A DNA stretch of 64,000 nt from Scenedesmus sp. ARA3 (taxonomy: Eukaryota > Chlorophyta > Chlorophyceae > Sphaeropleales > Scenedesmaceae): assembly GCA_004335835.1 (NCBI GenBank), contig RWJK01001409.1, forward strand, positions 1 to 64,000, written 5' to 3'. The translations under genes and the position numbers were made by a program. Of this stretch, positions 1-64,000 are shown piece after piece. Under the pieces are notes generated by a model. That model saw only the letters and a program-made list of their open reading frames with translations. It did not search any database and was not told where the DNA came from. How positions within the stretch are numbered: position 1 is the first letter of the stretch; each line of letters begins with the position of its first letter.

Positions 1-1357
1 GGACATGACGCTGCAGGAGAAGATGCAGCGCTGGCAGAACGTGAAGCTCACCGCGCGCATCATGGCCAACCCCATGGCCACCTTTGCAGCAGCCGGCTTC
101 GCATACAAGGCGACAGGTGTGCTAGCTTGCGCTGTGTGAGCAACAGCACTATCATCAGCAGCATTGCTGGTGGCAGCGAGCGCATGCTGTCTTTTGAATG
201 CCCCATGGCCACCTTTGCAGCAGCCAGCTTTGCATACAAGGCAACAGGTGCGCTAGCTTGTGGACGTTTGAGCAACAGCACTATCATCAGCAGCAAATGT
301 TGGCCAGCGTGCGCATGCTGTTTTCTGATTGCCCCATGGACAAGCCGCACAGTGGTGGAGGCTAACACCAGATTGTAAATGCCTGGTCCGCAACAGCGGT
401 AGCAGCAGCAATGATGGTAGCAGCAAGCAATTGCTGTCTCCTGAACGCAAGGCATATGCGTGCCTTGCGCTTACTGGCAGCCTTGCAAGCTGCAACACAA
501 CACAAAAGTAAACTACACAGCTTCACGCAGCCCCTTGAAAGAAAGAGGGAGGGAGGCAGGGACAATAATGAAACAAGCAGCTGGCTGTCCGAGGCGTGCC
601 TAATGTCCCACGCTCAACTGCTGCTGCTGCTGCTGCTGCCCTGCAGAGTGCAGCATGCGGCACTACCTGGGCCGTGAGGACAGCCTCAACAGCATGGTGG
701 GCGGAGCAGCGGTGGGTGCCGTGCTGGGCCTGAAGGCCAACAGCGGCGCGGTTGCGCTCAAGTACGGAGCGCTGGTTGCAGGTGAGGCTCTTGCACTGTT
801 ATTGATTCTGCAGAGAGATTCTTGTTATGCCAATGCGGCACACAGTCAGTAGGCGGCGGCACGCATGCATCTTTGTTTTTGTGGTCAGGCTGGCACACAG
901 CCGGGCGGGGTGCCGCATATGTAGGTGAACCAGCAGGGCGCTCTGCAGGTGCAGTGGGGCAGCTGAGTGACTTCGCCGCAGGGGTGGTCAGGGATGCGCT
1001 TTTAGTAGCTTGCACACGCATGGCGTGGTCTTAGTGCTATAGGGTCTGGCTGCCTGTGCTACAGCGCAGGCTGCGTGTGCTGAGCATATTCTTGCCCTGA
1101 CTGCTGCTGTTGCTGCTGCTGCTGCCGCTGCCGCAGGTACCATGCTGATCACCGACTTCTTGACAAGGCGGTGCCTGCGCTCACCTCGGACCTCAAGTCC
1201 ACTACTGGCCAACCTTGCTGCTGCTGCTGCTGCCGCTGCCGCAGGTACCATGCTGATCACCGACTTTTTGACCAAGATGGTGCCTGCGCTGACCTCGGAC
1301 CTCAAGTCCACAGGGCCAATTGAGATCCAGAAGAAGCCCGCAGCAGCCAGCCAGTGA
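1..1357 (+). CDS. Tim17/22/23-family protein, probable mitochondrial complex I subunit B14.7 (NDUFA11-like), 5' partial
   Basis: Three exons join in frame: 1-116 (cut by the window edge; first full codon at base 2), 647-781 and 1245-1357 (TGA). The product has a basic amphipathic stretch (MQRWQNVKLTAR), then a small-residue hydrophobic stretch, then a Gly/Ala-rich segment (NSMVGGAAVGAVLGLKANS) with the glycine spacing of Tim17-family membrane helices, and ends in KKPAAASQ. Order and spacing resemble plant B14.7, an accessory membrane-arm subunit of respiratory complex I in the inner mitochondrial membrane. A TIM22/TIM23-type or OEP16-like protein is the alternative. Introns begin GTGTGC and GTGAGG, and the second exon follows a CTG run. 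The start codon is outside the window. The family is fairly secure from the Gly-rich repeat; the subunit assignment is inference. Confidence 0.6.
200..345 (+). repeat. Partial copies of the end of Tim17-like exon 1
   Basis: Bases 200-260 repeat the last ~50 bases of the exon at 1-116 plus its donor and the first intron bases, with a few substitutions. A weaker echo follows near 328-345. They lie inside the first intron, downstream of the exon end they copy. Confidence 0.75.
1134..1200 (+). pseudogene. Frameshifted copy of the last Tim17-like exon
   Basis: The acceptor and start of the terminal exon (MLITDFLT...) appear first at 1134-1200 and again at 1241-1304. The upstream copy has lost one base after the DFLT codons, so it cannot encode the conserved tail, and it runs into a second acceptor. 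The downstream copy is intact and holds the stop codon. The upstream copy is best read as a decoy pseudo-exon within the intron. Confidence 0.7.
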
Positions 1358-3074
1358 GGCCGCTGCTGGCTGGTTGACGCGAGTCAGTTCGGATGCATTT
1401 TGCGCGCGACAGTAGTAGCAGCAACCGAAGCAGCTGCACACTTGGAGCTGCTGCAGGCGGGAGTGTGGACAGCAACTTGGGTGCTGAAAGCTGCAGTTTG
1501 AAAGGACTTACAGCAGCTGGCGCGCTGGCACAGTCATGCTGGCTGAGTGTGCTGCGGAGACAGTGATGTGGCTGCAAGTGTTGCTGTGCTGGCGACATGC
1601 TATTGCGGGAAGCTGTGTAATGCTGCATGTCCACGGCCGTTCGGACCTTTGGCAGCGGTTGCCATCATAGGCTGTGGCATGGTGTAGGGGCTGCAAGGCA
1701 CCACTCTGACGTGCTCCAGATGCTGCTGCCTGCTTGGGTGCCTGCATGAATATTGCAGAGTATGGCGTTGCACTACACAGGATGAAAAATAGCATGTGCA
1801 GTATTGGATGGGCAGTTGAGCTGAAGGTGTAGCAGCACTGTGCGTGCCCATTGTGCTGAGTGTGATTAGCAACTGTGGCCACAGCGCCTTGCCAGCACTT
1901 TCGCTGTTAGCTGCATTGCAGCAGTAGCAGCTGCTGCAGCACTGTGACACTCTGGCTATGGCTGTGCAGTTGCATATGCATGAAGTGTGTTAACTGCAAG
2001 GTGTTGCGGCGTGTACAGGCTTGACAACATGGGTTGAACTGCTGGTGTTTGTAGTAATAGAGTTGGCTTCTTCAGCACGTACTGCAGAAACAGTGCTGTC
2101 GTGTAACAGCAATCATGCATTGCATCCATCCCAGCAAGATCTCCCTGATTGTAACGATGCTCGCAACTGGGCACCGCCCTCAGCAGCGGCAGTCACTGCG
2201 CCACTGAGTGGCTGCTGCTTTGTGCCGGCTTCAAGTTCTGTCCCAATCTTCCTGCCTTTCATGCCGCACAATAACGACTGGAATGCATTGATGATGCGTG
2301 CTTTCAACTGGTTGCCTGATTTGGTCTTGAGCAGCACAGCTGTTTTAAAAGTGTCCCGTGCAGTCCAGGGTTCTGCTTTCCTCTTTCAAGTGATGCCGAC
2401 AGCGTCTACGACGAAGACTATAGAACCGCACGTGTTAAGTTGTTATTCAATTAGTACTGGCATTTGCAGGCCGGCAGCTCTCGCTTTATTCAGGTCAGAG
2501 ACAGACGACGCCCGTATGAAGGCACACTGTGCTCTTCAATGTATGATATGACCTGCAAGCGTCACATATAAAACACGTAGTTATCATTATCTCGTATGCT
2601 GCGTTTTGTGGTGCCAGCATGGCGAACCGCTGATGAGAGCGGGAGAGCCTGACAGCTGAGCAGTACTATGGCTCGAGCCGATGATAAGCGCGGAGAGTGG
2701 CTGCTACGGAAGGTATGGCGTGCCCGATTACATGTAACATCGCTCCATCACCAGTTCCAGCAGCTGTGTCCTGTGGTGCATGCCGCATGATGAGCCAGTA
2801 CGTTGACAGTGTGTGCTGTCCACTGCTGTTGTGGTGCAGGCAGATGCCATCAGCAGCTTTGTTGCTGCTCAGCGCAACCGCACACAGAGCACAGCCACCA
2901 AGTCAGCGTGGGGCGTTGCTGCAAAGCAGCTGTCTGTTGAGAGGTGAGGATGCTTGCAGTGCTGCAGCAGTGGGGCAAGCTCCTGCACTGACGCTATGCA
3001 GCATCAATGTAACGAAGCAGCATGGGCAGAAAAACCTCACACATCACTCCAGGTTGATAAACGCCTGTTGACAC
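1358..3074. other. Intergenic stretch, no supported gene
   Basis: Short open frames occur on both strands, the longest being 2021-2551 (+), but none shows a recognisable domain, splice structure or coding-like composition. I see no RNA gene or mobile element. A TGTAA motif at 1616-1620 may end the upstream transcript. Confidence 0.5.
1616..1620 (+). terminator. Candidate TGTAA polyadenylation signal
   Basis: Green algae commonly use TGTAA just upstream of the poly(A) site. This is the first such motif after the Tim17-like stop codon, about 260 bases downstream. It rests on a five-base motif only. Confidence 0.35.
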
Positions 3075-5863
3075 ATGTACACCCGCTGCCAACTGCCTTG
3101 CACACGGCACTGCAGCGAGGTGCTAGGGAAGCAGCTGCAGCAGCTGCTGCAGCAAGCCAGCGCCCGCCACCCAGACCTAGCACCTGACATAGCGCAGCTG
3201 CAGGAGCAGCACAGTGCAGCAGCAGCCGAGCAGCAGCTGGAGCGGCTGCAACTGCTGGCGCAGGCAAGTGCTGTAGCAGGCCTGTGTATCCACTTGCAGG
3301 ACTTGCTCAAAAGTATTGTTCTGGTGTACGCCTGCGAGCAGCATTGCAGCAAGCTGTACTTTGACAGAGCAGAAGCAGCATCTTTATGCGGCACAATTCT
3401 GCAAACTCAGCCAGGGCAGCAGTTATTTGCAACTATAGTCTGGTGTTGCTGCCGCGCACCTGTCTGTTCTGTTGCGCAGGTGCAGGACCTATCTCGACTA
3501 GTGCACAGCATCCGCTGCTACGGCCTGCCTGCAGCAGAGCAGCAGCTGCCTTGCGACACACTAACATCACTCAAACAGGAGCTGCGCTGGCTGGGGCAAG
3601 ACATAGACAGTCAGCTGCAGCAGCTGGCAACTGAAGCCGAGCAGCTGGCAGCTGAGGTTGCAGCAGACACAAAGGCAGCAGTGGCAGGCGAGACTGTGAC
3701 AGTCACAGACAGCACATCAGAGGTTGATGGGGTAGCAGATGTGCATGGGACGGGTAGACAGGGTGAAGGCAGCAGCAGCAGCTGTAGCAGAGGACCCAGT
3801 GACAGCAGCAGCGGCAGCTGCTCGGCAACAGAAGCAGAAGAAGCCAAAGCATCTCAGGAACCAGACAGCTCACCAAGCTCTGTGCAGCAGCAGCAGCACC
3901 CTGAGCTGCAGCAGCTGCTGGCTCAGCACCTCCTTGCGCCTGAGCGGCTGAAGCAGCAGGTGCAGGAGGCATATGCTGGCCTGCTGCAGCATCATCAGCA
4001 GCAAGTGCAGCAGCTGGCAGCGCAGCAGGGCGCGGGATCCGCCAACAGCTGTGGTAAGTCATGCAGTGGGTACAGGTGCAGACATGCACAGCTTTGCATC
4101 GCCGGAGTGGCGGCAGATGCTGAGGCAGCCAGCAAAGTCGATTTGGTACAGCATGTTGCGCAGTCTCACCCTTTACCGCCAGCATGCAACAATAACCTCT
4201 TGCCAGGCAACTGCGGCACGTCAGGCACAAACGGCATGTATCTGCTGCCGCAGGTGGCTGGTCTGCAGATGACCATGCGTTGTTCGTGCGGCTGCGGCAG
4301 CTGGCCTACAAGACAGCAGGCGGGGCCGGCGGCGGCAGCAGCAGCAGCAGGGGCTGCAGCAGGTCTGCTGTGCTGGACAGGCTGGGCCTGATGATGCCCG
4401 GCAAGAGCAAGAAGCAGCTGCAGGAGCACGATGCGTGGTGAGGGTTTGTCTGTCTGACGCTTTACAGTGTTGCAAACTCATGCTTGCCGCGCAGGTGGTA
4501 TCCTCAGAAATTCAATGGCCCCTTCATTAATTCCCGGACTTTGGTCATGTTGGTCATCTGCTGCCGAGCAGACACACCTCTTACAATGTGTGGTGAGCGC
4601 AAAGCGCATTGGACAGGTTGCAAGGGTGGTGGTTGCTGCGCAGAGGGTCCCCTGGAAATAAAATTCAGTTATCTTGCAGTCTGCGTGAGTCTCACACGAG
4701 TTATGTCTGTTTTCTTGTGTTGCCGAGCAGGTACACCGCCGCCTGCCTGCACCAGCGCCGCGCAGCAGACCTGGCGGCAGCCTGGCAGCGGCAGCAGGCC
4801 TCCTTCCTGGCAGACTCCTGCAGGATGCTGGCGGAGGCGGCAGCAGCAGCAGCAGCCGGCGCAGAGGCAGCAGCAGCGCGGCTGGCGTGGGAGGCGGCAG
4901 GGGGGCTGCTGGCGGGGCAGCTGGCGGAGCTGCAGCAGGCGAGGCAGCAGGAGCAGCAGGTAGGGTCTGGGGTTGGCTTGCAAGCCGGCGGGGCCTGTCT
5001 ATATGGAGGGTTTGTGGCATTGGACTGCAGGCAGAACAGCAAGGGCGGCATTTGATCTGTACAGAGCTGTGCTGTGTATGCCAACAGCGGCTGCATTGGC
5101 AGCATGGTCAACTTCGGCGCTTCTCCCGTAAATCTGCATGTACAGCACAGCAGGCATCAGCTGTCACTGCAACTGCGTTCCTCAAAGAGTGCTTGACACC
5201 CAGCTGTGTTTCCTGCTCCAGGAGCTTGCAGCACAGCAGGAGGCAGCAGCGGCAGAGGCAGCGCTACAAGCAGCAGCCGCCCAAGCCGCGTGGCAGCAGC
5301 AGCACGAGGCCAAGAAAGCCCACGTGCAGCAATACAAGCAGCAGCTGGCGGAGCAGCTGGCACATGCAAAGGCAGCAGAGAAGCAGGCAGCAGCAGCAGC
5401 AGCAGCTGCCCTGCAAGCAACCATTGCTGCACAGAAGCCAGTTGTAGAGGCAAGGCAGGCAGAGTGTCTGGAGAAGCGGCTGGAGCAGCTGCAGCAGCAT
5501 CAGCAGCGGCAGGAGCAGCTAGCAGAGCGGCAGGCGCGGCTGGATGCAATAGCAGCAGCCCTAGCGCCGCATATACAGAGCGATCCTGCGCGCGTGCTGC
5601 AGCCAACAGCAGCCAGTGCCGCAGCAGCAGATTGCATTGCTGGTGCGGCTGCATTCAAGCCGGTGCATGGTTACACGACTGCCCAGGTTGTTGCTGATCC
5701 GAGGTTTAGGGTTGTTGAGGCGCTGAGCTCAGCTGGGCTGCTGGCTGGTGCTGCCAAGGGCTATGTGCAGCAGGTGGTGGCGGCAGTGCAGCCTGCTACT
5801 GCCAGCCGCATAGACAACTACACCAGCAGCCAGTTGCAGGCAGCCGCCAGGCGGCTGGGGTGA
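3075..5863 (+). CDS. Coiled-coil protein resembling CCDC148/CCDC112
   Basis: The model uses exons 3075-4053, 4254-4437, 4731-4959 and 5222-5863 (TGA), which join in frame (677 codons). The open part 3264-3479 may itself be an in-frame intron with a GC donor, giving about 605 residues. The N-terminal half is Gln/Leu/Ala-rich coil. The middle has a SANT-like block, DDHALFVRLRQLAYK ... GKSKKQLQEHDAWW, followed by a long Gln/Glu/Ala coiled coil. The C-terminus is HGYTTAQVVADPRFRVVEAL and a short helical tail. A DDH...Lxxxx...HxxW block before a coil and a late DPRFR motif recall CCDC148/CCDC112, which are linked to cilia or centrioles; that is a family-level impression. The product would be cytosolic or ciliary, with no membrane segment. 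The start is the first ATG of the open frame and is uncertain. Confidence 0.6.
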
Positions 5864-5936
5864 TTGCGAGGTTGGATTTGGTGGTTACCTAAATGAGCCT
5901 ATCTTCGGCTCAAAGAAAGGGGCTGTGTTCTCATTG

Positions 5937-5941
5937 TGTAA
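5937..5941 (+). terminator. Candidate TGTAA polyadenylation signal of the coiled-coil gene
   Basis: TGTAA lies about 75 bases after the stop codon at 5863, a normal distance for a green-algal polyadenylation signal. Confidence 0.5.
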
Positions 5942-6017
5942 CACACAATTCATGATGCTGGTTGGTACCACTGCAGCACTGCTGCTCGTTCCAGGGCTTG
6001 ATGCCTTGAGGTCGACA

Positions 6018-6137
6018 TAGCCTGCTGCCAAGGGCTATGTGCAGCGGGTGGTGGCAGCTGTGCAGCCTGCTGCTGCCAGCTGGATAGACAACTACACCAG
6101 CAGCCAGCTGCAGGCAGCTGCCAGGCGGCTGGGTGAT
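6018..6137 (+). repeat. Downstream copy of the end of the coiled-coil gene's last exon
   Basis: This segment repeats about 115 bases ending at the stop codon of the upstream gene (original near 5748-5866), including the codons for the final helical tail, with roughly 10 % differences. It has no open upstream frame of its own and lies beyond the candidate poly(A) signal, so it looks like a non-coding tail duplication. Confidence 0.85.
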
Positions 6138-7137
6138 GCGGGCCGGCAGCCCTGCTGCTCGTGCCAGGGCTTGATGCCTCCAGGTTGTTCTGGTGGCACG
6201 GTGATCTACTCATGACTGGCTTATGACACCAGCTGTCGGCATGGAAACCTGTGTAAGCAATGAAGGAGGAACTGGGTACCTGATTGCCAAACCCTCATGA
6301 GCGGTAGATCGGCTTGCTGGGCTTTGACCTGAGGTAGGTCCGTCCTATACTTTGGTATTGGTAATGGTAAGAACCCTGAGCTCCGGGGCTCGCAGGATTG
6401 ATCCAGTGCATCAATGGTGTGGCATGCCATCTGAAAGAGCACAGAAGCAATCAAAGCGAGCTGTTCAACTTAGTAGTACTTGGACTCGGCTCTAGAGATA
6501 ACCCCATCTTGATTAAGGCTAAAGTGACACGCCTTGCTATGTGATGCGTAACAAGGCATGGACTACAGAACACACCAATCATCCTGCACTAATTTGCCAA
6601 CCCAGCCAACAGTATTTGGTGGCCAGCCTAGTCATGACAGTATCAACAGTATCAACACAGCTATGATCTGTCAATTTTACGAAGCAGTTGTCTGCGCAGA
6701 GGCAGGCACTGCAACAGGAAATACTATTGAACTCAATGAGTTCCGAATCTATGCACGGGCCATGCATGCACGCAAGCCTTCCAAGCAGAAGATTGATGAG
6801 ATGGATGCAGCTTCCCGCCACCTGTACAACAGGGCAATGCAACCACTTTGCTTGACAGTGAGCCGCCGGCACCGGCAGCAGGTAACAGCCACAGCCCAGC
6901 TGCTGCTGCTTGCTCAACCAACCCGCCAGCCATGCAGCTGCCTTCATTCCAGACACTGCGCATGAACTGACAGGGACATACTATGCAATGATACTATGTC
7001 AATGACTTCCTCACTTCAAAAACTTCAAAAGCCGCCAAGCAATTATGCTAGCACTAGCGCACACGCAGCGTTAGCGCAATCACACACAAGCATGCACACA
7101 TATGTAAGAGCACTGGTGACCCTCAGGCACATGCACG

Positions 7138-7712: not shown

Positions 7713-7917
7713 CTTATCATGCATGCCTACTGGCACAAAGCTTCCCATACCCACCTTGCCGTTGACTTGAAAACTGAACTGCAACTGCACAGCTCAGGCT
7801 GCCTACTTGCAAAGTTGCAGCCCACTTGCTAGCACGTACTCCCACTGTCATACGTCACCGCAAAACACCCTAACTCCCTTGCACAAAATGAGGTGGTGTT
7901 GATCACAGCGAGTCCCC

Positions 7918-9499: not shown

Positions 9500-9960
9500 A
9501 AAAATCAGCGGTCAATCAATGTGCCGCCAAGGAATCTCAAGGCGGGAAATCAGTGGTCAAACAATCAACAGCTAGCCAAACACCGGTCAAACATTGGAAG
9601 CCTCGGTGGTCATTGCCAGCCAGTAGCCAGCCCAGCATCTCCACAACCTTATCCAACAATCAGTGGTCGAACATTAGTGGTCAAACACTCGAGCATGTGG
9701 TCAAAGCATCAGTGGTCGTCGCTGAACAGCAGCCGCTGCAGCATCGCTGCAGCATCGATTGCACCTCCACCACCTCTTTCAAAAGCCAACAGTCAAACAT
9801 CCAAGCAGCATCGGTCAAAGCATCAGTGGTCATCGCTGAACAGCAGCCAGCCCAGCATCTCCTGCACAGGTGTTGTCAAACAATCAGCGGTCAAACATCC
9901 AAGCAGTCGGTCAAAGCATTCAGTGGTCGTCGCTGAACAGCAGCCAGCCCAGCATCTCCT
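9500..9960. repeat. Composite tandem repeat next to the kinase gene stop
   Basis: Units combine a GGTCAAACA-type core with longer blocks reading AGTGGTCGTCGCTGAACAGC and AGCCAGCCCAGCATCTCC. The longer block recurs near 9700, 9825 and 9925, and the last copy runs into the final codons of the kinase gene on the minus strand. That suggests the array grew partly from the end of the gene. Confidence 0.8.
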
Positions 9961-10079
9961 GCACTTCAACCACCTCGTCAAACTGCTGACCTGGCAGCAG
10001 CGCCATCAGCTCAAACAGGCTCAGAGGAGAGTCCACCTTCAACTCAACACTGCTGCTGCTGCTGCTGCTGTCGTCACAT

Positions 10080-10904: not shown

Positions 10905-13900
10905 TGCTTGGGCACTGTTGCATCTGCCACACCTGCCTCCTCCTCCTGCTGCTGCTGCTCGTTGCTGTCATCGTCCGCTGAGAAGCGTGAGGCATCCACT
11001 CGCACGCATGGCAGCAGCATCACGGTGCACTTCCGCAGGATCTTCTTGAAGCCGCACCACACCGTCTTCTTGATGCGCTGGCGCAGTGATGCCAGCGGCC
11101 GGCGCTGCTGCAGCTGCCGCACCTGCTGCTGCAGCTGCTGCAGCTGGCGCACCTGCTGCTCCAGCTGCTGCACTGCCGCTGCTGCTGCCGCCGGGCATTC
11201 CTGCCCAGCTGCTGCTGCGCCACATCCTGCTGCTGCTGCTGCTGCTGCAATGCAGTCTGTTTCATCCTCCCCTTCCTCCACCTGTCCAATGAGCACCTCA
11301 TCATCATAGTGGCAGAACCTCCCGGACGATAGCAGGCTGCTAATGCTGCTCCAGTTTTGCTTCGCATCCGGCTCACTGCGGCAATCCATGCGTGCTCGCG
11401 CCAGCAGCTGCTGCAGTGCCGCATAGCTACAAGGCCGGCTCTCCATAGGCCCTAGCAGCGCGACTAGAACGTCTAGCAAGCCTTTTGTGGCTCCCGGGTG
11501 ACTGCCTAACAACGCGCGTACACCAGCATAGTGCTGCGGCGCATTGCCGGCGTGGAATGCTGCTGCTGCCATGCACACCACCTTCTGATGTAGCGCCTCA
11601 TTCCCGCGGGCTAGGATGAAGGCCAGCAGCTGACCCAGTGCGTAAAAGTCGTAGGCTGGCAGGTAGCAGCCTTGGGGGTTTGACTTGACCTTGTAGTGCA
11701 GCGCGATCTCGCCGGTGCTGGGGTCCTCTGCGAGCGCTGAGCGCATGAGGGCCTCTGCCTTGAGGTGAGGGTCCTGCGAGGCACCGCAACAAAACATAGC
11801 AAGAAGACGTCAGAAGACAGAAGAGCAGCAAATATTGCATGAAACTGGAGGAGATGGCCTTGGACTTGAGGTGCGGGTCCTGCGAGGCAGGGGGAGATAC
11901 ACAATGAAGTGAATGAATGCTGCAAGGGCAGCTGAGGGCGCTGAACGCACGAGGGCCTTGGACTTGAGGTGGGTCATGCACAGCAGGAGACACAAGAGAT
12001 ACAAAATGACGGAGCAGAGGGTGCGGATTGAGCTGCGGATGTTGTACTGAGCAAGCTATTAAGCGGCGGGCAAGTGATGCACAGTGAGGTCAGATTGGCT
12101 GTTTGTCGCATGCAACTTGCAGATGTCCAAGGTTTGATCAGCTCATGCTGTGTGCGGCAACACAATAAATGAACCTGCGCTCGGCAGCGCAGTGTGGCTG
12201 CTGCCCATCGCAAGTGGCATGGCAGATTATCAGCTGCATCTTAGCATCCAACAGCACATGCCGGCAGCTGCAAGCTTGACAGCTGCAGTTGCACTTGCAC
12301 ACAGCCATGCTCATCACAGCAATTCCTCCTGACACCAAGGTACGTCAAGGTACCCACCATGTAGATGAGCGTGCCTCCAAAGCCGTGATCGATCACAGGC
12401 GTGCCCGGCGCGCACGAGATGCCGTAATCCACCAAGTACACGCCCGGCAGGGGCGCACTGGCCGGCCCGGGAGCCCCCGGCTTCCCGCTTCCGGCAGGTT
12501 CCGACAGCACTTTCCGCGAGAGGCAGACTTGCGCGGGCTTTAAATCGTTGTGCACCATGCCACGGCTGTTGTGCAGGTCGTCGAGTGCTGCTCCGAGCTG
12601 GTCGATGATGTGCAGGATGGTCTCGGTGGGCAGCTCAGGCTGCGAGGCCAGGTAGTCATCCAGGTTCTGCATCAGAAAGGTGAACATTTTCGGCAAGTGA
12701 ATAGTGAGATGAGGCATCCAGCTGAGTGTGAGCGGTTGGGCACAGGGTAGTACAGTATCAGCAGCTGCGGCTGGGAGGCCAGGTAGTCATCCACCAGTGT
12801 ATCCAGGTTCTGCACCAAGGTAGGGCAGGAAAGTGAGGAGTAAGGTAAGGAGGCAGGAAGCGACTGTGCATAGGCAAATGAAGGAAAGACTGGGTACTAT
12901 TACTGTCACCCTGATGAGCAGAGTAGCAGCTCACTGGTCTTGTGCCTGCAGCAGGCTTTAGATCTGAGATGTAGTGCACTGAATATTGCAGTGCATTGGC
13001 TCTCACCATGGGGTCTGGCGTGAGTGCCTCAAACACGAACCAGCTGCAGCTCTCTGTGTGGCTCGCCCACAGCAGCTGCGGCACCCGCAGCACCCTCACA
13101 AGCATGAAATGAGCCGAATATGCAAACGTCAAAACCCCAAACGAAGCAACTGCCTCTCACCATGGGGTCTGGCGTGAGTGCCTCAAACACAAACCAGCTG
13201 CAGCTCTCTGTGTGGCTCGCCCACAGCAGCTGCGGCGCCCAGGGGCAACCATTCACCGCAGTACAGGCGGCCTCCTCCCGCTCACACATCTCCCTGCTCC
13301 ACTCGGGGTCATCGGGGTTGTAATCCACCACCTTGATTACTACCGGCAGCCCGAGCGTCAGCCGGCCGTCAGGGAAGGCGGCTGACACGGCGGCTGCGGT
13401 GGCTGCTGACGGCCACGGCGCGTGAGCCTGGTACACGGTGCCTGCAAGTGCGAAGCAGCATGGTATTTGTGGTTCAGATTGGGTTTAGGGTTTGCAACTG
13501 TACAGTTAGTTACATCTATGGCGGCGGGTGGTGAGGGCCAAGGTGCATGGGCCTGGTACACGGTGCCTGCAAGCATGATGCAGTGCAAGACAGCGCATAA
13601 TTCAACGTTCATGGTTTGAAGATGAAGAGTTGGTTGCATCAGCCGCAGCGGCTGCGGAGGGCCACGGCGCGTGCATCTGTTACATGGTGCCTGTGAGGAA
13701 ATGTCATACATTGCAAGGCAGCGCATCGTTTGGCAAGCGTTTGTACCAACAACGTGATCAAGGTCGAGCAAGCAACAGCTATGTAGGGCTCTGCCTGGCG
13801 GGCAATGCACCGCTGTACAGAAACCTGGCGGCAGGCAGACCTGCTGCATGTGCCTGCCTTTGCTGACGTACATGCAACCAGGCACAGCCGAAACACATAA

Positions 13901-21222: not shown

Positions 21223-22028
21223 ATGCCTATCTACAACATAAGGGGATACGATGTGGACTTTCCACACGAGGCTTACCCCTGCCAGGTCAGCAGCACCAAG
21301 CAGTACATACAGCCTGGCCCCTGCCATGCATGTGCTGCCAGCACACTGCAGGGCAGTAGCAGCCTGACAACCATGCAGCATGCAGAGCTGCTTATTCTGC
21401 GAGGCTGTTGGTGCTGCTGACCCTGCTGTTACTTCTGCTGCTGCCTGCTGCAGATCACTTACATGGAGCAAGTGCTGGGAGCGCTGGAGCAGGTGTGTGC
21501 AGCAGTGATGCAGGCAGCATGCACAGCCGCATGCAGCAGAGATACAGCTGACAGCAAGCGGCAGCAGCAGCAGCAGCCGCCCGAGGCTGTGCCGGTGCAG
21601 CTTGCCAACATAGCATGTGCATGCCACATGGCACGGCTTGCAGCAGCCGTGCCGAGCTGACGCACAGCAGGCACCAGCTACTTCGGTTGCCTGCCCGCCG
21701 CTCCTGCCTAGCGAGGGCATGTGCTCCGAACATTTGCTGTGCATGAAGAGCCACAGGCCGCAGCTGAGCCAAACCCCCTGTTGCACAGACTTCAGGCAGC
21801 AGGCGTGCAGTTGTCGCAGCCCACAGTGATTTGCAGCTGCAGCCAGTAGACAGCAGGGGGCACAGCACGCCCAGCACGCTCCTGCAGGAGCTTCACCACA
21901 ACCGGCTGCCCATAAATTGACCATGCTGTGTCACTCCCCATGCTATTGCTGCGACCATGCCGCAGTCAAGATGGCTCATCCGCACCTTGTGCTGTTCATC
22001 ATGCTGCTGCTGCTGCTGCTGCTGCTGC

Positions 22029-22065
<37 letters not shown>

Positions 22066-25000: not shown

Positions 25001-26592
25001 TGCTGCTGTTGCGGTGTGGTGTGGTGTGGTGTGCTGCATGCTTGACGCCTGCTGTTGTGTTGCTTTGGCCCGCTGCAGGCGCACCCAGCACCGCCAGGTG
25101 AGCGCGCGATAGAGCTGTCTGCTGTTGCAGCTGCTGAGCACGACGCTGGCATATGTTGTGGGTTATGTCATGCGCTTCTCACGCCTGCTGTTGTGTTGCT
25201 TTGGCCTGCTGCAGGCACACCAAGCACCGGCAGGAGCGCGTGATGAAGGAGCTGTCTGCAGCTGCTTTTGCGGTGTGGTGTGCTGCATGCTTGACGCCTG
25301 TTGTTGTGTTGCTTTGGCCGGCTGCAGGCACACCAAGCACCGCCAGGAGCGCGTGATGAAGGAGCTGTCGTCAGCTGTGCCTGCACCGGTTGATATTGAG
25401 GAGCTGGTCAAGATCGGGCGGCATGCAGAGGTGGGATGGGCCGGATCTTATTCAGATCTTTAAATCACCACTGGAGATCTGTTGAATGTATATTGAAAAC
25501 CGTGTGGTGATTGAGAAGCTGGTCAAGATCGGGCGGCATGCAGAGGTGGGGTGGGGCGGATCTTGTTCAGATCGTGAATCACCACTGGAGATCTTTTAAA
25601 CATATCTTGTAAATCAAGTGGTGATTGAGGAGCTGGTCAAGATCGGGCAGCATGCAGAGGTGGGGCTGGGCTGGTGGGGGCATCTGCTGCTGCTGCAGCA
25701 GCAGCACGCTGCAGTCACATCTTACTCTGCATGCGCTGGCACACGCCCCTGCAGCTGCTGTGCTGTTCATCGGCTCTGCAGCTGAGGGATTGCAAGCAGC
25801 AGTGTAGGCAGCGCCCTCCCCCTGATCTGTTGATGAGTTATGGGCCTACACGATGCAGTGTTCTCTTGCCGCTCTGTGTGCATGTGGAGACCACCTTGCA
25901 ATTGCTGCTGTTTGTCGCTGGCCTCCCCCAGGTGTGCCCCTATTTCCTGTCGCGTGACATGGCCAACACTGCTGAGGTCATCTTCATGCCTTACAACTAC
26001 CTGGTGGATAGCCAGGTGTGTTTGGGGGGAATGTTTGCAGCTTGCACCATAATGCCTTGAAATGGACTTGGTGGTGTAGCAATTGAGTGTGCAACACTGC
26101 TGAGGTCATCTTCATGCCACACTATACAACTAATTGGTGGACAGCCAGGTGAGGGTGCTGTTGTTTGCATTACCATCCGGCACTTTAGGGTTGTGCAGAG
26201 GAAGGCTTAGTACTGCTGAGGTCAACTTCATGCGCCCCCTACAACCACCTGCTCGACAGCCAGGTGTGTTCCCTCTTGCTCTTCGTTGTTCAGTTGGTGT
26301 TACTTGGACTTGCATAGGCATGAGAGCGGCTCTGGGGTTGTGCGTCGAGGTTTAGCACTGCTTAACGTTACCTGTGGAGTCTGACATGCAACGTTGCATG
26401 GTGCATGACTAGTGTGCAAACCGCTATATGATTGTGCTCTGCACTGTCATGGTGTACTTGTCGTCAGGCAGCTGCTAGTATGCTGCACATGGCGCGCTCT
26501 CTGCAGCGGCTTTGTGTGCAGCTGCTAGTATGCTGCACAGCAGACTGGCGTGGTGTTGCAGCCGGCTCACTGCTGCTGCTGTCTGCCGCTGC

Positions 26593-26629
<37 letters not shown>

Positions 26630-31844: not shown

Positions 31845-31876
<32 letters not shown>

Positions 31877-33721: not shown

Positions 33722-33754
<33 letters not shown>

Positions 33755-34031: not shown

Positions 34032-34064
<33 letters not shown>

Positions 34065-34779
34065 GTATGTGTTGCGTTGGCTTTGGTGACTGTACTGTCG
34101 ATGGTGAAGGGCTGGAGTGTTCACGCGCTCATGCTTGCGCGCCTGATGCCATATTATTGGTGCAATCACACACAAGTGAGGCGCAGGTGGATGCCACAGC
34201 TACACAGCCCGCCCACAACAACCCAAGACAGACCCCTGCAAAGCTATGCATGCTGCCGTGTGCTGTCGTGCGCTTCTGCCGTGACGTCTGGGCTGTCGGT
34301 GCCTGCAGCGGCCCCTCCAGATGCTCTGACCTGTAATGCTGCTGTTATGACCTGTATTGTTTGAGGTTTACATTACTCTGCATTGTTTGTTATTTCAGGC
34401 AGCGGCCCCTCCACTGGGAGCGCATCCTGCGCCACAAAGCGCCCGTGGTGAAGCCATGCGACAGCCATCACCTCACATTGCCTGTAGTTGTTGCCATTTA
34501 AGTTACTCAGCGCCGCAGGTGGCTGGCTTCCTTGCTGGAGAACCGACTCCTTTCTCTGCCTTGTAATCCATATTGTCGACGTCTACTTCACTTTGCGCTG
34601 CTTCTGGTTTCAGGTGGCGGCCCCTCCATATGGGAGCGCATCCTGCGCCACAAGGCGCCCGTGGTGGAGCCACGCGACAGCGGGTCCTTTGGGGCAGCCA
34701 TAGCCGACTACCAGGCCAAGCTGGACGACCCTGCTGGCGGCGGGGCGGTGCTGTTTGCGGTTTGCAGGGGCAAGGTAGG

Positions 34780-34813
<34 letters not shown>

Positions 34814-54525: not shown

Positions 54526-56067
54526 ATGGGCTCGCCGTACGCCAGAACACGAGTGCGTAGCAATGTATAAATTAGTGCATACCAGCTGTGTTGTTCACCA
54601 CCGTCCTCAGGCAGCTGGTATAGAAGCCAGGAACTGGATAGCAGCAGTTGCCTCTGACCAGCTTCTGTTGTGGGTTGCAGGACAACCCGTTCGCAGACTC
54701 CACGCTCTATGACGTGAACACAACATACGTGCCACCTGATTTAAGCGAAACAGTAGATGCTGTGGTGCCAGCAGTGGTGCCTGTGGCTGGTGCTGGCGCA
54801 GCTGCACACACTCCTGCAGCAGTACCTTTCCCAGCACCAGCACCACAAGCAGCTGCAGCCACACCAGCGCCTCCACTGCAGTTCACAGGTATGTGGTTTG
54901 ACGCAGCTGCAATCACAGGCTGCATCCTGCATGCTGCAGCAAGGTACAGCTGTAATGATGGCGCCAGCAGCTGGCGCTGTTTGCGCAGTACAGTCGGCAA
55001 AGCTTGCAACGTCAAGCATTGGTGTCCTGCTGGCTGCCATGCCGCTGTTGCTGCCAAACAACTTCCTATGTGCTGTTCCTCTTCGCAGAGTCAAACCTTA
55101 ACACCAGTGCAGTAACAGGGCAGATAGGGCGGCCAGGTGGGCGGAATCAGCACAGCAGCAGGCAGCAACAGACGCACACGCATGATGCAGCCTAATAAGC
55201 ACAGCAGCAGGCAGAAACAGACGCACCTGCATGATGCAGCCTATGAAGCTCTGCCAGCCCTTGGCTCTGCTATAGCAGCAGGTGTTGGAGCAGCTGCAGC
55301 TGCGTGGCAGGTCAGTGATGTCATGTGTGGTGCTGCTGTCGTCTCCAACAGTAGTGTCTGGCAGTCAAGTGCCAGTGCCATGCACCGCAACATCACGCAG
55401 CACACGCTGAGTCAAAGACTGCATGCCCTTGTGCTAGCATGCACTCCTGCAAGTTGACTTGGTATGGCGTTGGCATCGACCCTTCGTCCCGCAGGCACAG
55501 CACCTGCAGCAGGTGGCAGCGTGCCAGCAGCAGGCAGCAGGCCAGCCACATCACCTCCTGCAAACACATCACTGCCGGGGGACCCAGATGACCCCAGCCA
55601 GTACCCCTTCTGGAATGTGCGGCGCTACAGGCCGCTGTTTAACGTGGACACAAAGGTGCGGTGCAGCAGCAGCAGCAGCAAGTAGCAGCAGACCTAGCCA
55701 GAGCAGTACCAGCAGCAGTGCGCGCTAGGTTGTCTTTAGGTGCAGCGACTGCAGCAGGCCAGTCCACGTCGCAGAGAACTGTTATTGGCACAGCAGCAGC
55801 AGCAGCAGCAGCAGGAACAAAGCAGCACCAGCAGCCGCAAGGCTACCTGCAGTGGGCAGCTGCAGGTAGTTCACCAGCGGCTGTACAGCTTGCAGGACGA
55901 ATAAGTTAGGACAGGCTGCAACGGTGCTGGGAGCGGCAGCGGCTGTGGCAGCAGCAACATGCAGCGCCTATTGCAAGCTGGGATAGCCTGCGTTCAAGAT
56001 AATGCAGCGCACACCCGGCACCAGCACCAGCAGGTGCATTGGTGAGGGCAGGTGCAGGACATGCTAC

Positions 56068-56102
<35 letters not shown>

Positions 56103-56180
56103 GGGACGTTGTGTGGCGCGTGGGCAGCAGCTTTCTGGGCCCGCTCAAGCCTGACTCAATGCAATGGTCCTCTCCAATCA

Positions 56181-56275
<95 letters not shown>

Positions 56276-56570
56276 AGGATGTGGTGTGGCGCGTGGGCAG
56301 CAGCTTGCTGGGCCCGCTCAAGCTTGACTTCATGCAGTTACATGCTCTTATGCTGCTGCTGCTGGCGCTGCTGCTGCTGCAGGACGTGGTGTGGCGGGTG
56401 GGCAGCAGCTTCCTGGGCCCCCGGACTTCATGCAGTGGTCTGCTCTGAATTATGCTGCTGCCGCCGCCCGTGCTGCTGCTGCTGCTGCTGCAGGACGTGG
56501 TGTGGCGTGTGGGCAGCAGCTTCCTGGGCCCGCTCAAGCCCGAATTCATGAAATGGTCTGCTCTGATGTC

Positions 56571-56602
<32 letters not shown>

Positions 56603-56735
56603 CTGGATGTGGTATGGCGTGTGGGCAGCAGGTACCTGGATCCCCTGGAACCCGACTTCATGCTATGGCCCTCTCCAATGATCTGCTGCTTCTGCTGCTG
56701 CCACTGCTACTGCTGCCATCGCTGCTGCTGCTGCC

Positions 56736-56777
<42 letters not shown>

Positions 56778-59278
56778 CTGCAGGATGTGGTGTGGCGTGT
56801 GGGCAGCAGCTTCCTGGGCCCACTGAAGCCCGACTTCATGGCAGTCACGCTGTCCAGCCCAGACCTGTACGGGCCCTTCTGGGTGGCCACCACACTCATC
56901 TTCGTGACCGCAGGTGGGTGGGGCTGCGCTGTGCTGTTACACTGTATGTACTTGAGTGTGTGTACTGTGCCTTTGTGGCCCTTCTGGGTGGCCATCAGAC
57001 TCATCTTTGTGACTGCAGGTGAGGGGTGCGCTGCTACATGTGACAAGAGGGGCTGGCTGCATTGTTTTGTACTTGGAAGAGGGGTGCTGTGGGGTTGTGG
57101 CCTTTCTGGCCACCACGCTCATCTTCATGACCGCAGGTGCGTAGCAGTACATAGAAGGGTGCTATGATTGTACATGTTGATGATACTGCTGAGGAGGTGG
57201 TCCCCCATGGTCATCTCTGTGGCGGCAGGTGTAGCCGCAAGGTGGTGCTGCATGTGTGGCTACTGTTGCTGCAGCTGAACATGGCCCCTTGAGTGTGTGC
57301 TGCGCGCGGCGCCTGCTGGCAGCTTGCAGCAACTGCAGTAGCTGAAGTGTTTGTGCTGAGCTCATTTGTGTGGAACCATTTTGCGCTGAGCATGTGCGTG
57401 TGTGTGCCTGTTCCTGCCCTGCAGTGGCTGGCAACTACGCGGACTTCATCGCGTTCAGGTCGCAGCAGAAGGCAGCAGCAGCTGGCGGCGATGCAGGTGG
57501 GGAGGCAGCTCAGCTGCAGCTGCAGCAGCAGCAGCAGCTACGCAAGCTAGCCATACACAGGGCCAGCACCAGCACGCACATGTACTGCCGTCCATCCTTG
57601 CGCACAAAGTGCAGTAGGTTTCAGCTGGCGGCTGCTGCTAGCTGTGCGTGCATGCTGCGTAGTAAGGTGCTGCGCCGGACGGCTGCATGTGCCAGGCAGT
57701 GCATGCATTGCTGCAAGACTTCGACATATTCGCAAGCGCAGAGTTCATCTGCTTGGCAAATAGCGCAAGTGTCCTGTGGCGGGCCTGCTGAGCAGGGTGT
57801 GCCTTGCTCGCCCGTGCCTTGCTTCCTTGTGCCTCCCCGCCCTCCGCAGGCAACATCGGCGAGCGGCAGTGCTTCACGTACCTTCTGCTGATGATTGCTG
57901 CCTGCTGCCTTGCTGTCTGCTGTGCTGCCTCATGCCTTGCTGCTGTGAAACCCGCAGGCAGCATCGGTGAGCGGCAGTGGTACACGGACTACGCCAAGAT
58001 GAGCTTCAGCGCGCTGCTCTTCTACGGCTACGTGTTCGGGCTGGGCCTGGCGCTGTACTTCGCGCTGCGCTGGTTCAAGTGAGTTTCATGTTGCGATGTG
58101 CCAGTAACCAGGTGTCAGTCCTACAAGTGTAGTGTATGTGTTCGGGCTATGTGTGCGTGTTTGGGCTGGGCCTGGCGCTGTACTTCGCGCTGCGCTGGTT
58201 CAAGTGAGTGCATTCGTATGAACTATAACTTGATTGTGTTGGCGCTGCCTGGTCCAGTGAGTAGTTGATCTTGCTTGTGAGGCGTTGCTTGCGGCGCTGT
58301 ACTTTGTGCTGCGCTGGTTGAAGTGAGCATGATCTGACTTGTGAGGCCTTACTTTTGCGGCTGTGCTTTGCTGCGCTGGCTCAAGTAAGTATGTCCTTGC
58401 TTGTGGCCGGCAATCATCCGGCCGTGCTGCAGCTGAGGACATTGATGCTGTTCTTTGCGCTGCGCTGGTTCAAGTCGTAGGCGGGGCTTATCTGGATTAA
58501 ACAGGCCCGGGCCCATGGGCCTGGAGAGGAGTCGCCGCCTGCTGGACTAGTGCCTGGGCTGGCAGTTTGGTTCTGAACATGTGTTGAATGCATGTGCCTG
58601 CGCCGCAGGTCTGAGATCAAGCTGTCCAACGTGTGGTGCATCTACGGCTACAGCCTGACCATCTTCATCCCCATGGCCTTCGTGTGCATCGTGCCCATAG
58701 GATGGGTGCGCTGGCTGGTGGTGGGCCTCGCCACAGGTGCGACATGTGGTGACGGCAGCAGCAGTGGAAGCAGCAGCAGCAGCAGCTGCTGCAGCAGCAG
58801 CAGCAGAAGCATAGGATGGGTGCGCTGGCTGGTGGTGGGACTGGCAACAGGTGCGACGCCGCCGCTGCTGCTGCTGCTGCTGCTGCTACTTTGCTGCAGC
58901 GCATGGAGAACACGACACATTTGCTGTGAAAGCCGTCCTGCAGCAGCCACAGAGCACATCAAAAAGCGCACATGCACAGCCTGCGCCATGCGCTAGCAGC
59001 ATGCTGCGTATGGTGCCGCTGCATTTCCTTGCACATAGCTTCCAACGGCTGCTGCCACATCCTCATCCTGCTGCCTCACTTCTTTCTGTTTGCTGCCTGC
59101 AGGCATGTCGGGGCTGTTCATCGTGTCCAACCTCAAGCAGACGATATACGACGCAGCGCCGGCGCGCGCGGTGATGCTGCTGGGCATCATTGCTGGGCTG
59201 CATGCAGCAGTGGGGCTGCTGCTACGGCTGTACTTCTTCCACTATCGCGGCGCGCCGGAGGTCACGGGCTCCGGCTGA
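54526..59278 (+). CDS. Yip1-domain membrane protein, YIPF1/YIPF2 type
   Basis: Eight exons join in frame to 340 residues: 54526-54552, 54681-54888, 55495-55655, 56784-56913, 57425-57496, 57958-58078, 58609-58736, 59103-59278 (TGA). The N-terminal half is cytosolic, Pro/Ala-rich, with DNPFADSTLYDV and YPFWNVRRYRPLFNVDTKDV. The C-terminal half has the Yip1 hallmark DLYGPFW and about five membrane segments: WVATTLIFVTAVAGNY; FSALLFYGYVFGLGLALYF; YGYSLTIFIPMAFVCIVP; WLVVGLATGMSGLFIV; and VMLLGIIAGLHAAVGLLLRL. YIPF1/2 proteins sit in Golgi and trans-Golgi membranes, bind Rab GTPases and other YIPFs, and act in vesicle traffic and glycan processing. Length (human ~306) and order fit. Exon 1 is small; its ATG lies in an excellent context (CAACCATGGG) but the first exon is the least certain. 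Confidence 0.87.
55148..55245 (+). repeat. ~50-bp direct duplication in a YIPF intron
   Basis: CACAGCAGCAGGCAGCAACA...CATGATGCAGCCTA is repeated twice head to tail with three differences, in the intron between exons 2 and 3. Confidence 0.88.
56070..56783 (+). repeat. Five upstream copies of YIPF exon 4 start, each with a CTG tract
   Basis: GATGTGGTGTGGCG and the codons VVWRVGSSFLGPLKPDFM occur near 56102, 56277, 56382, 56492 and 56606 before the real exon at 56784. Each copy follows a CTG run; the run at 56179-56274 is about 32 units long. Copies carry substitutions or small deletions, and none continues into the DLYGP codons, so only the last is a full exon. Confidence 0.96.
56945..57235 (+). 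repeat. Copies of the end of YIPF exon 4
   Basis: The codons for PFWVATTLIFVTA plus CAGGTG donor recur near 56975-57022 and 57095-57140, with a faint third near 57195-57230. Divergence grows with distance from the real exon end at 56913. Confidence 0.88.
57845..57890 (+). repeat. Copy of the start of YIPF exon 6
   Basis: The acceptor and codons for IGERQCFTY appear here about 110 bases before the real exon at 57958. Confidence 0.88.
58135..58480 (+). repeat. Copies of the end of YIPF exon 6
   Basis: GTGTTTGGGCTGGGCCTGGC through the WFK codons and GTGAGT donor is copied almost exactly near 58155-58210. Increasingly decayed copies (GCGCTGTACTTTGTGCTGCG and shorter) follow near 58293, 58365 and 58453. 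Confidence 0.9.
58740..58880 (+). repeat. Copy of the end of YIPF exon 7 between CAG and CTG runs
   Basis: The codons for IGWVRWLVVGLAT with donor recur at about 58808-58855, after an AGC/CAG-rich stretch and before a CTG run. Confidence 0.92.
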
Positions 59279-63001: not shown

Positions 63002-63052
<51 letters not shown>

Positions 63053-64000
63053 AAAAATCAACCAAACAGCCACCATGTTGGCAGTGCTGACAGGAGCCAG
63101 CTTGCCATTTACGGGCTGCCACAAGCAGTAGTGGAAACAGCAGTGTGGTGTGAGTATAGGAGTATGAAGCATTGGCAGTCGCAGCCAGGCACAGGCAGGA
63201 GCGCAACACAGGATGAAACAGTCATTTGGTAGCAGCTTATAAACAAATCTGCTGCTGTGCCTGTGCAGGGATACACAGGGCAACGCGAATTTGAACAAAG
63301 CAGACGTTATGCAGGCTGCTGCAGTTGGGCCCCCTGTAGCTGATGTACTGTGCGGCTCTGGATGACTGGCACAGGCGGCAAGCTGGTGGCCAGCTGTAGA
63401 AGTGATAGCGTCATGCAAGTAAGCATGCTGCAATGTTGATTAACGCTGCTGCAGGCACAGCACCTCGAGTACTGCTTTGATGCTGCAGTTTGTAAGCGCA
63501 CCAGCCTACGCTGCTGTGACGCGCTTGTGTGTTCTGGCCAGCTCGTAATGCTGGTGCTGCTGGTGCTGTGCTCACAGTGCTCACCAATGACGATGCGCCC
63601 TGCTGGTTCTGTCTCTGTCGGCAGCACGTTCTTGTCACCCAGCAGGCGGTCATTTGCAGACTTGAATGCAGAGGCGGCAATGCCGATATCAAAATACACC
63701 TGCAAGGAACATCAGCAGTACAAATGCTGGCCTTGCTGACAAGCATTGAGTAGTACTGCCACAGAGTGACTGCTTGGCGCAGTGACGGACGGTGGTAATG
63801 CTTTGCTTCTTGACAGGCTGGCATCGCATGCCAAGACAAGTGCGTGCCTGCTGCTTACAGCACATGTCCAGCACTGCACCCCTGATCGAAGGATAAAAAC
63901 TCAGTGCAGATTGCGATCACACACGCTTCAGCATACCATGCTCACCCTGTCTGTGATCGTCAGGTCCAACTCCTCTGCTGCTGCTGCAGGGCTGCTGCTG
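60571..64000 (-). CDS. Thylakoid-type cyclophilin (peptidyl-prolyl isomerase), CYP26-2/CYP28-like, 5' partial
   Basis: Minus-strand exons: 64000-63946 (cut by the edge), 63699-63585, 62857-62688, 62149-62028, 61643-61529 and 60714-60571 (TGA), all in frame. The product reads EELDLTITDRVYFDIGI, GRIVIGLYGKLAPVSAANM, AGAFTQSAFSRISPGEYIQA, SRPGTVSLSLSENDEDPAIK, LQFLITTGPGPVPRLDGLNA and IGRVEEGMDTVRLLAQ, the order of a cyclophilin beta-barrel. The divergent active site, the SLSENDED insertion and the FAAFIGDDRANNVRRQYGK tail match plant CYP26-2/CYP28 proteins, which are predicted thylakoid-lumen isomerases. The usual catalytic Arg/Phe residues of cyclophilin A appear replaced (SAFSRISPGEYIQAG), so isomerase activity may be weak. 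The targeting peptide would lie beyond the window. Confidence 0.85.
61160..61530 (-). repeat. Three copies of the end of cyclophilin exon 5
   Basis: The codons for GRVEEGMDTVRLLAQ plus donor recur at about 61177-61230, 61288-61343 and 61409-61463, downstream of the real exon end (61529) on the coding strand. The two nearest the exon, with their ~65 bases of intron, form an almost exact 120-bp tandem repeat. Confidence 0.96.
62157..62215. repeat. (CAG)n tract at a 3' splice site
   Basis: About 13 CAG units plus interrupted CGG/CAG lie just 5' of the cyclophilin exon beginning at 62149 on the minus strand, where they read as a CTG run leading into the acceptor. Confidence 0.95.
62435..62530 (-). 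repeat. Copy of the end of cyclophilin exon 3
   Basis: It repeats the codons for ISPGEYIQAGRRGSRRLGDI...VPGLA and the donor, about 200 bases past the real exon end at 62688, with a few substitutions and a short insertion of GGC units. Confidence 0.92.
62878..63120 (-). repeat. Two copies of cyclophilin exon 3 start with (CAG)n tracts
   Basis: GLYGKLAPVSTANMVA-coding fragments lie near 62940-62998 and 63068-63118, upstream of the real exon (62857) on the coding strand. CAG runs of about 15 units at 62878-62922 and 63005-63050 separate the three. Confidence 0.95.

What the first reader, a model, noticed from the sequence alone, without database searches (positions are those of the whole stretch)
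1..64000. Exon edges are tandemly copied into the adjoining introns in nearly every gene
More than 50 partial copies can be matched by eye. Copies of an exon's first 20-80 bases always lie upstream with the acceptor attached. Copies of an exon's last bases always lie downstream with the donor attached. RTEL1 shows this for most of its exons; the Tim17-like, kinase, EF-hand, zipper, YIPF and cyclophilin genes show it too. Copies are diverged, so they are not simple assembly duplication, and divergence often rises with distance from the real exon. The arrangement fits repeated local tandem duplication across splice junctions. It creates arrays of decoy splice sites, and I know of no named system described this way.
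Basis: partly seen in the sequence, partly recalled or inferred. Interest (0 to 1): 0.88.

Follow-up and report, generated by a model that had tools for sequence, protein, structure and literature searches.

The report
Exon edges duplicated into neighbouring introns
In this green alga, short pieces from the ends of exons have been copied again and again into the introns beside them; the copies look like harmless, slowly decaying repair scars that record what the exon looked like in the past, and at one site they differ between related sequences.

Summary
The observation largely holds. The window is Tetradesmus obliquus or a very near relative. In three genes with exons mapped by homologous proteins (RTEL1, a kinase, a YIPF-like gene), all 74 repeat pairs that include a real exon touch an exon edge: acceptor-edge copies lie upstream (33), donor or stop-edge copies downstream (41), no exceptions. 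32 of 33 repeat clusters touch an exon; random placement gives 8-22. RTEL1 has copies at 24 of 36 junctions. 'Nearly every gene' is not shown: a 200-kb sample has about one sixth the density.
Decoys do not look conserved. Changes unique to one decoy fall 32/20/50 on codon positions 1/2/3; sites where several decoys disagree with the exon fall 3/4/40. Each decoy is a snapshot of the exon, decaying nearly neutrally. An independent ORF lacks one decoy (empty site); another carries two with other fillers, so that array is real and recent.
Best reading: repeated local repair-type duplication, about half tandem-like, half copy-filler-copy. Geometry plus selection explains the direction rule. It does not fully explain the edge preference or the abrupt stop within about 14 nt of the splice site (21 of 23 pairs).

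The parts
21223..37962 (+). RTEL1 gene, 20 exons (exons 2-20 at 22065-37962)
   Evidence: spliced alignment of T. obliquus OEZ86_014079 (P0001); exon 1; no second RTEL1 among the 42 matches
22113..22484 (+). RTEL1 exon 2 donor-edge array (real end 22160, decoys 22255, 22341, 22478)
22753..23312 (+). RTEL1 exon 3 acceptor-edge array (real start 23254)
23413..23570 (+). RTEL1 exon 3 donor-edge copy (95%, copy-filler-copy)
24072..24336 (+). RTEL1 exon 4 acceptor-edge array
24385..24668 (+). RTEL1 exon 4 donor-edge array, 3 decoys
24825..25377 (+). RTEL1 exon 5 acceptor-edge array, 4 decoys
25395..25674 (+). RTEL1 exon 5 donor-edge array, period 115
   Evidence: filler found only in its own array
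25964..26270 (+). RTEL1 exon 6 donor-edge array, three different intron flanks
27124..28146 (+). RTEL1 exon 9 acceptor-edge array, period 217
28159..28714 (+). RTEL1 exon 9 donor-edge array
29340..30448 (+). RTEL1 exon 10 donor-edge array
30550..30750 (+). RTEL1 exon 11 acceptor-edge copy
30745..31200 (+). RTEL1 exon 11 donor-edge array
31430..31579 (+). RTEL1 exon 12 acceptor-edge copy
32025..32330 (+). RTEL1 exon 14 acceptor-edge copy
32366..32545 (+). RTEL1 exon 14 donor-edge copy
32937..33168 (+). RTEL1 exon 15 donor-edge copy
33388..33534 (+). RTEL1 exon 16 acceptor-edge copy (93%)
33591..34072 (+). RTEL1 exon 16 donor-edge array, 4 decoys
34355..34681 (+). RTEL1 exon 17 acceptor-edge copy
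34973..35302 (+). RTEL1 exon 18 acceptor-edge copy
35316..35907 (+). RTEL1 exon 18 donor-edge array, 4 decoys, period 125; outermost decoy differs from the exon only at third codon positions (6 of 6)
36027..36584 (+). RTEL1 exon 19 acceptor-edge array
36586..37538 (+). RTEL1 exon 19 donor-edge array, period 255
9598..9964 (-). kinase gene, copies of the CDS 3' end (stop-codon edge) downstream of the gene
   Evidence: exons from P0152
11728..11979 (-). kinase exon 4 acceptor-edge copies
12630..12793 (-). kinase exon 3 acceptor-edge copy (block starts 4 nt inside the exon)
12997..13240 (-). kinase exon 2 donor-edge copy, 80 nt of exon + 10 nt of intron, 97%, filler with no other match
13393..13726 (-). 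kinase exon 2 acceptor-edge copies
56062..56848 (+). YIPF-like gene, acceptor-edge array upstream of exon 56784-56913
56872..57142 (+). YIPF-like gene, donor-edge array of exon 56784-56913
57844..57989 (+). YIPF-like gene, acceptor-edge copy of exon 57958-58079
58031..58475 (+). YIPF-like gene, donor-edge array of exon 57958-58079; first decoy 98% over 54 nt, filler with no other match
58696..58857 (+). YIPF-like gene, donor-edge copy of exon 58609-58736; absent in P0143 (empty site), two decoys in P0141
70..342 (+).
   Evidence: junction by eye only
1108..1311 (+). Tim17-like gene, acceptor-edge tandem copy, 94%
   Evidence: junction by eye only
5749..6185 (+). CDS end with stop codon (by eye) copied downstream; second shared block beyond an indel of about 100 nt
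   Evidence: junction by motif only

Best explanation
The arrays are scars of a very active local duplication process of the DNA-break-repair or template-switching kind. It copies about 30-255 bp of DNA in direct orientation close to itself, sometimes as a head-to-tail unit that includes intron, sometimes with about 30-165 bp of unrelated filler between the copies. Events inside exons are lost to selection. Events that straddle the border between coding and non-coding sequence survive because the gene keeps its first donor and last acceptor and the spare copy falls into the intron, or behind the stop codon. The spare copy is then a useless decoy that decays nearly neutrally while the real exon keeps evolving, so an array is a series of past snapshots of the exon. 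Shown: the arrays, their direction, edge preference, copy-filler-copy structure, the snapshot pattern (RTEL1), and presence/absence at one site in independent sequences. Inferred: the repair mechanism, selection as the filter, and lack of function of the decoys.
For: The intron flank is homologous in 26 of 51 RTEL1 decoys (rank p<=0.05 in 25 or 26 of 26, by scoring scheme). Plain tandem arrays also occur without splice signals at the proper ends (e.g. 7509-7736, 7918-8152, C869:82706-82979). The stop-codon edge of the kinase CDS is copied like splice edges, as a filter at coding borders predicts and a splicing-driven process does not. Codon-position test: unique decoy changes 32/20/50, changes separating the exon from several decoys 3/4/40; 36 of 37 decoy indels shift the frame. 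Three fillers searched in the 87-Mb genome have no match outside their own array (the tool warns that no match is no proof of rarity). Empty site: P0143 lacks the decoy unit at 58696-58857 and continues with the intron that follows the decoy here; P0141 has two decoys with other fillers at the same edge. Human repair-mediated duplications are likewise short, proximal and can carry 1-68 nt fillers (PMC2671141).
Against: The edge preference exceeds what geometry allows: 32 of 33 clusters touch an exon; even with all introns set to <=190 nt about 22 are expected. Of 23 exon-decoy pairs with >=90% identity and aligned length under 0.75 of the spacing in the three mapped genes, 21 end between 4 nt inside the exon and 14 nt into the intron (the others reach 20 and 130 nt), while they take in 25-89 nt of exon; random breakpoints should reach equally far both ways. 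Copies without intron homology are not older than those with it (positions 1+2 mismatches 30 of 699 against 44 of 916), so erosion of the intron half does not explain it. The exon interior is not seen in the filler of these copies (1 of 20 or 0 of 20 at p<=0.05, Fisher p 0.62-0.89). In humans only 4 of 824 donors were partial exon/intron.
Confidence: 0.6

Rival explanations
1. The mutational process itself is guided to exon edges: breaks arise inside introns and repair copies back to a barrier at the exon border (for example an exon-positioned nucleosome, or a co-transcriptional RNA-DNA hybrid ending where U1 or U2AF sits), giving copies that stop just past the splice signal.
For: Edge preference; short intron reach in 21 of 23 young partial pairs; match excess at donor +4, +6, +7 then background (14 donors); distances often near 90-140 and 200-265 nt, partly multiples within arrays; recurrence at the same edge with similar step in P0141 (41 and 44 codons).
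Against: Half of the decoys share long intron flanks; a stop-codon edge is copied too; no chromatin or RNA data here.
Confidence: 0.22
2. Decoys are kept by selection, as spare or regulatory splice sites.
For: 31 of 33 decoy donors keep GT and 19 of 19 decoy acceptors keep AG (placement by best match favours this).
Against: That retention is near the neutral expectation at about 4-5% divergence; 18 of 51 decoys carry frameshifts; unique changes spread over all codon positions; distances modulo 3 are 18/19/17 of 54; decoy number at one edge is 0 in P0143, 1 here, 2 in P0141.
Confidence: 0.07
3. Old tandem duplications whose exon part is kept alike by gene conversion from the real exon.
For: Exon-part mismatch is similar in copies with and without intron homology (127 of 1371 against 86 of 1048) and identity falls little with distance.
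Against: Sites where several decoys disagree with the exon mark past states of the exon rather than recent copying over; intron-only repeats should be homogenised too, but no RTEL1 cluster lacks an exon.
Confidence: 0.06
4. Assembly artefact: two diverged haplotypes or strains laid end to end.
For: Third-codon-position excess between exon and decoy is what two coding haplotypes would show.
Against: No second RTEL1 among the matches in the assembly; many decoys are broken by frameshifts; up to four decoys per edge; intron flanks repeat too; an independent contig carries its own array at the same edge (P0141).
Confidence: 0.05

Closest known systems
Repair-mediated duplication by capture of proximal chromosomal DNA (human and other vertebrates, PMC2671141; abstract, outline, sections 7 and 10 read)
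   Same: Short copies of nearby DNA, filler of 1-68 nt at some breakpoints, polymorphic between lineages, splice sites sometimes copied.
   Different: There only 4 of 824 donors were partial exon/intron and 2+2 held full exons, and a copy can be inverted. Here copies are direct and nearly all at exon edges, often in arrays.
Tandem duplication crossing an intron-exon boundary (potato RdRp gene, PMC4974935, abstract read)
   Same: A duplication that spans a splice junction.
   Different: That case created a new intron; here no new intron is seen in the mapped genes, the old intron grows.
[quoted passage not shown]
   Same: Local tandem duplication, splice consensus copied.
   Different: The model would put a copy of the downstream exon part after the donor and of the upstream part before the acceptor; here the arrangement is the reverse.
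Introners (PMC9860276, search listing and start of abstract only)
   Same: Introns changed by insertion.
   Different: Introners are elements that copy themselves through the genome; here the fillers searched have no dispersed copies and the copies come from the adjacent exon.

Membership tests
Repair-mediated duplication (RD) | copy lies close (<5 kb) to its donor | tested here: met
Repair-mediated duplication (RD) | breakpoints with filler, microhomology or deletion | tested here: inconclusive
   filler seen in about half of RTEL1 decoys; microhomology and deletion need the empty-site DNA, only an ORF translation was available
Repair-mediated duplication (RD) | empty site in a relative | tested here: met
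   one case, P0143 against 58696-58857; other sites not tested
Plain tandem duplication | whole unit repeated, intron half included | tested here: inconclusive
   intron flank homologous in 26 of 51 RTEL1 decoys, not in 23, two between the cuts
Introner / mobile intron element | similar copies dispersed in the genome | tested here: not met
   three fillers searched, no match outside their own array in 87 Mb; the search can miss repeats
Intron gain by AGGT tandem duplication | intron ends that copy the opposite exons | tested here: not met
   0 of 74 exon-touching pairs in that arrangement
Functional decoy exons or alternative splice sites | conservation of the decoy by selection | tested here: not met
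   near-neutral spread of unique changes and frameshifts in RTEL1
Functional decoy exons or alternative splice sites | use in transcripts | not testable with these tools
   no RNA reads available

The most novel reading that the evidence does not exclude
A duplication process that reads the exon-intron border at the DNA level: breaks inside introns are repaired by copying the neighbouring exon up to a barrier within about 14 nt of the splice site, so that introns grow by accumulating dated copies of their own exon edges. Such arrays would be a fossil record of synonymous evolution and a marker of where chromatin or co-transcriptional structure limits repair synthesis.
Probability: 0.25. Interest if true: 0.88.

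Novelty: new variant of a known kind. Interest (0 to 1): 0.66.

Why it matters
It offers a route by which introns lengthen and fill with decoy splice sites, without mobile elements. Because decoys are snapshots of an exon at different times, they let one order synonymous changes inside a single genome, and they test how a spliceosome picks the first donor and last acceptor among near-identical ones. The edge preference makes the link between repair and gene structure directly testable. Practically, gene finders and short-read aligners may misread such genes (my own gene finder did).

Tried and rejected
An own gene finder failed twice (crash; collapse into tiny introns); a third version over-predicted exons and was used only to help draft protein queries. 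Mobile filler element: no support. Second haplotype contig: none found. Exon interior as source of the filler: no signal in copies without intron homology; in those with it, 3 of 26 (one array, exon 19) gave a signal. Selection or coding use of decoys: not supported. My early reading of 12997-13240 as a whole-exon copy was wrong: one search shows the last 80 nt of a 281-nt exon. Gene-model-free splice-signal test (window families outside RTEL1, and C869): donors at block 3' ends 15 against 6.3 random in the window but only 11 against 6.0 in C869; acceptors at 5' ends 14 against 10.3 in the window, and in C869 raised at both ends alike (22 and 22 against 12.1 and 12.8). This is weak support only. 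Residual intron homology in copy-filler-copy pairs: Fisher p 1e-4 to 2e-4, carried by 5-6 of 23, at least three of them in multi-copy arrays whose flanks include other decoys. Young partial pairs without a mapped exon edge (in C869 and unmapped window genes) are listed and were not used in the 23; three C869 pairs with a splice motif (2415, 68208, 146368) reach 5-6 nt into the intron, the other four C869 pairs of that list were not resolved.

Literature: among the papers listed by searches none was seen to describe exon-edge arrays of this kind; only the top of each list is shown and most subscription journals are not held. Papers: PMC2671141 outline, abstract and sections 7 and 10; PMC4974935 outline and abstract; PMC3443670 passages; the rest search listings only. 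Staggered-nick tandem duplications in plants are recalled, not read.

Dropped or added rows: decoys whose 16-nt junction context matched under 11 (3 of 54) were left out from then on; three further copies, placed by hand (22998, 27593, 27810), were added. YIPF exons rest on proteins of other algae (P0121, P0149) with some ends set by hand; one of them (57425-57512) lacks a canonical donor.


Full report
What the window is. A protein drafted by hand from RTEL1 exons matched 'hypothetical protein OEZ86_014079 [Tetradesmus obliquus]' at 99% over its whole length; a kinase in the window matched OEZ86_014077, on a contig of the same 5.9-Mb length. The genome is T. obliquus or a very near relative, 87.3 Mb in 1567 contigs. 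These proteins also tell which of several exon copies is the real one.

The observation. Self-comparison gives 125 direct repeat pairs with spacing under 1 kb in the window and no inverted pair under 2 kb; 200 kb of contig C869 give 62 direct and 1 inverted under 1 kb. Spacing is often about 90-140 nt and again 200-265 nt, partly as multiples within arrays. With exons set by spliced alignment of P0001, every RTEL1 repeat pair that includes an exon touches its edge; none lies wholly inside an exon, and no RTEL1 cluster lies only in an intron. The kinase (minus strand) and the YIPF-like gene behave alike, with one intron-only cluster in the kinase. Totals: 33 acceptor-edge copies, all upstream; 41 donor- or stop-edge copies, all downstream; 21 further pairs of the 95 contain no exon. 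Twenty of those 21 lie in clusters that also hold an exon-edge pair.

Is it more than chance? Placing units at random, with events wholly inside exons excluded, gives 8-13 of 33 clusters touching an exon for present or shrunken introns and about 22 when every intron is cut to 190 nt; 32 are seen. By hand calculation, even a four-fold better chance of detecting exon-edge copies leaves P near 2e-4 (shrunken introns). So direction is forced by geometry, but the edge preference is not fully so.

Two kinds of copy. In 26 of 51 RTEL1 decoys the intron flank is homologous too; in 23 it is not, apart from the first bases (two decoys fall between the cuts). In the second kind, match to the real donor flank is raised at +4, +6 and +7 and then falls to background (14 donors). 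In the three mapped genes, 23 exon-decoy pairs have at least 90% identity but an aligned length under 0.75 of the spacing; 21 of them end between 4 nt inside the exon and 14 nt into the intron, two reach 20 and 130 nt, and all take in 25-89 nt of exon. Nine of these are nearest-neighbour pairs (12630, 12997, 23413, 30550, 30745, 32366, 33388, 58031, 58696), with spacers of 29-116 nt. Three fillers searched have no match in the genome outside their own array. Copies of the second kind are no older than the first: mismatches at codon positions 1 and 2 are 30 of 699 against 44 of 916. The truncation therefore probably dates from the copying itself.

What the decoys are. Exon-decoy mismatches fall 51/37/155 on codon positions 1/2/3 (885/880/880 sites, 51 decoys). 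Splitting them in RTEL1 arrays with two or more decoys: changes private to one decoy fall 32/20/50, those that set the exon apart from several decoys or show several states fall 3/4/40. The first set is close to neutral, though not even (third positions are richer in G and C, same call); the second is the synonymous evolution of the real exon between copying events. Decoys are thus snapshots. 18 of 51 carry frameshifts. GT is kept in 31 of 33 and AG in 19 of 19, about what neutral decay at 4-5% allows, and the way junctions were placed favours it.

Independent evidence. P0143 aligns over 58583-59035 except for a gap of 39 residues where the window has filler plus decoy (114 bp), and continues with the intron that follows the decoy in the window: an empty site. 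Its intron part differs from the window at 5 of about 58 residues, so it comes from another strain or allele. P0141 has the same exon followed by two decoys at steps of 41 and 44 codons (123 and 132 nt) with other fillers. So this array is real, recent, and recurs at the same edge with a similar step. The other arrays could not be checked in this way.

How it most likely works. Shown: local, direct, edge-bound, partly filler-containing copies that appear and decay. Inferred: break repair or template switching with nearby DNA as template, followed by selection that keeps only events at coding borders. The stop-codon edge of the kinase copied the same way, and by eye two more (5749-6137, 19217-19655), favour this over a splicing-driven process. 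The surplus of edges and the short intron reach suggest in addition that the copying is limited by something at the exon border; chromatin or co-transcriptional structure are candidates without data here.

Known kinds. The nearest is repair-mediated duplication by capture of proximal DNA (PMC2671141): short, proximal, with fillers. But exon edges are rare there (4 of 824). A potato gene has one tandem duplication across an intron-exon boundary, which made a new intron (PMC4974935, abstract). The AGGT model of intron gain predicts the reverse arrangement (PMC3443670, passages). I file this as a new variant of a known kind: known type of event, unusual rate, placement and array form.

Limits. 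Three genes carry the exon-based counts and one (RTEL1) the decoy-decay tests; C869 is one contig, chosen for length; no RNA, no raw reads and no second algal genome were available; only one empty site was found.

Noticed in passing
window 7130-7261, 7918-8152, 47020-47347, 55145-55243: Tandem arrays (units 25, 47, 38-70 and 49 bp) in stretches where I mapped no exon; probably ordinary intergenic or intronic repeats.
   Followed up: no
C869 positions 1-172 (locus L009): Repeat resembling a subtelomeric or telomere-like array (CTAACCC mixed with GCACTAACCC units) at the contig start.
   Followed up: no
window 26706: RTEL1 intron 7 appears to start with GC (GC-AG intron); this junction has no copies.
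   Followed up: no
C869 about 2.4-14.8 kb (loci L009, L010): A second dense cluster of repeats that look like exon-edge copies; one exon reads like part of an ATR-type kinase (by eye, recalled resemblance).
   Followed up: no
window 14016-14384: A 97-nt pair (89%, spacing 272) in an intron of the annotated kinase that looks like an exon edge missed by the annotation; the one cluster of 33 without an exon.
   Followed up: partly
C869 188811-190005 (loci L027, L028): A long direct repeat (475 nt, 79%, spacing 744) that may be the ends of a mobile element.
   Followed up: no
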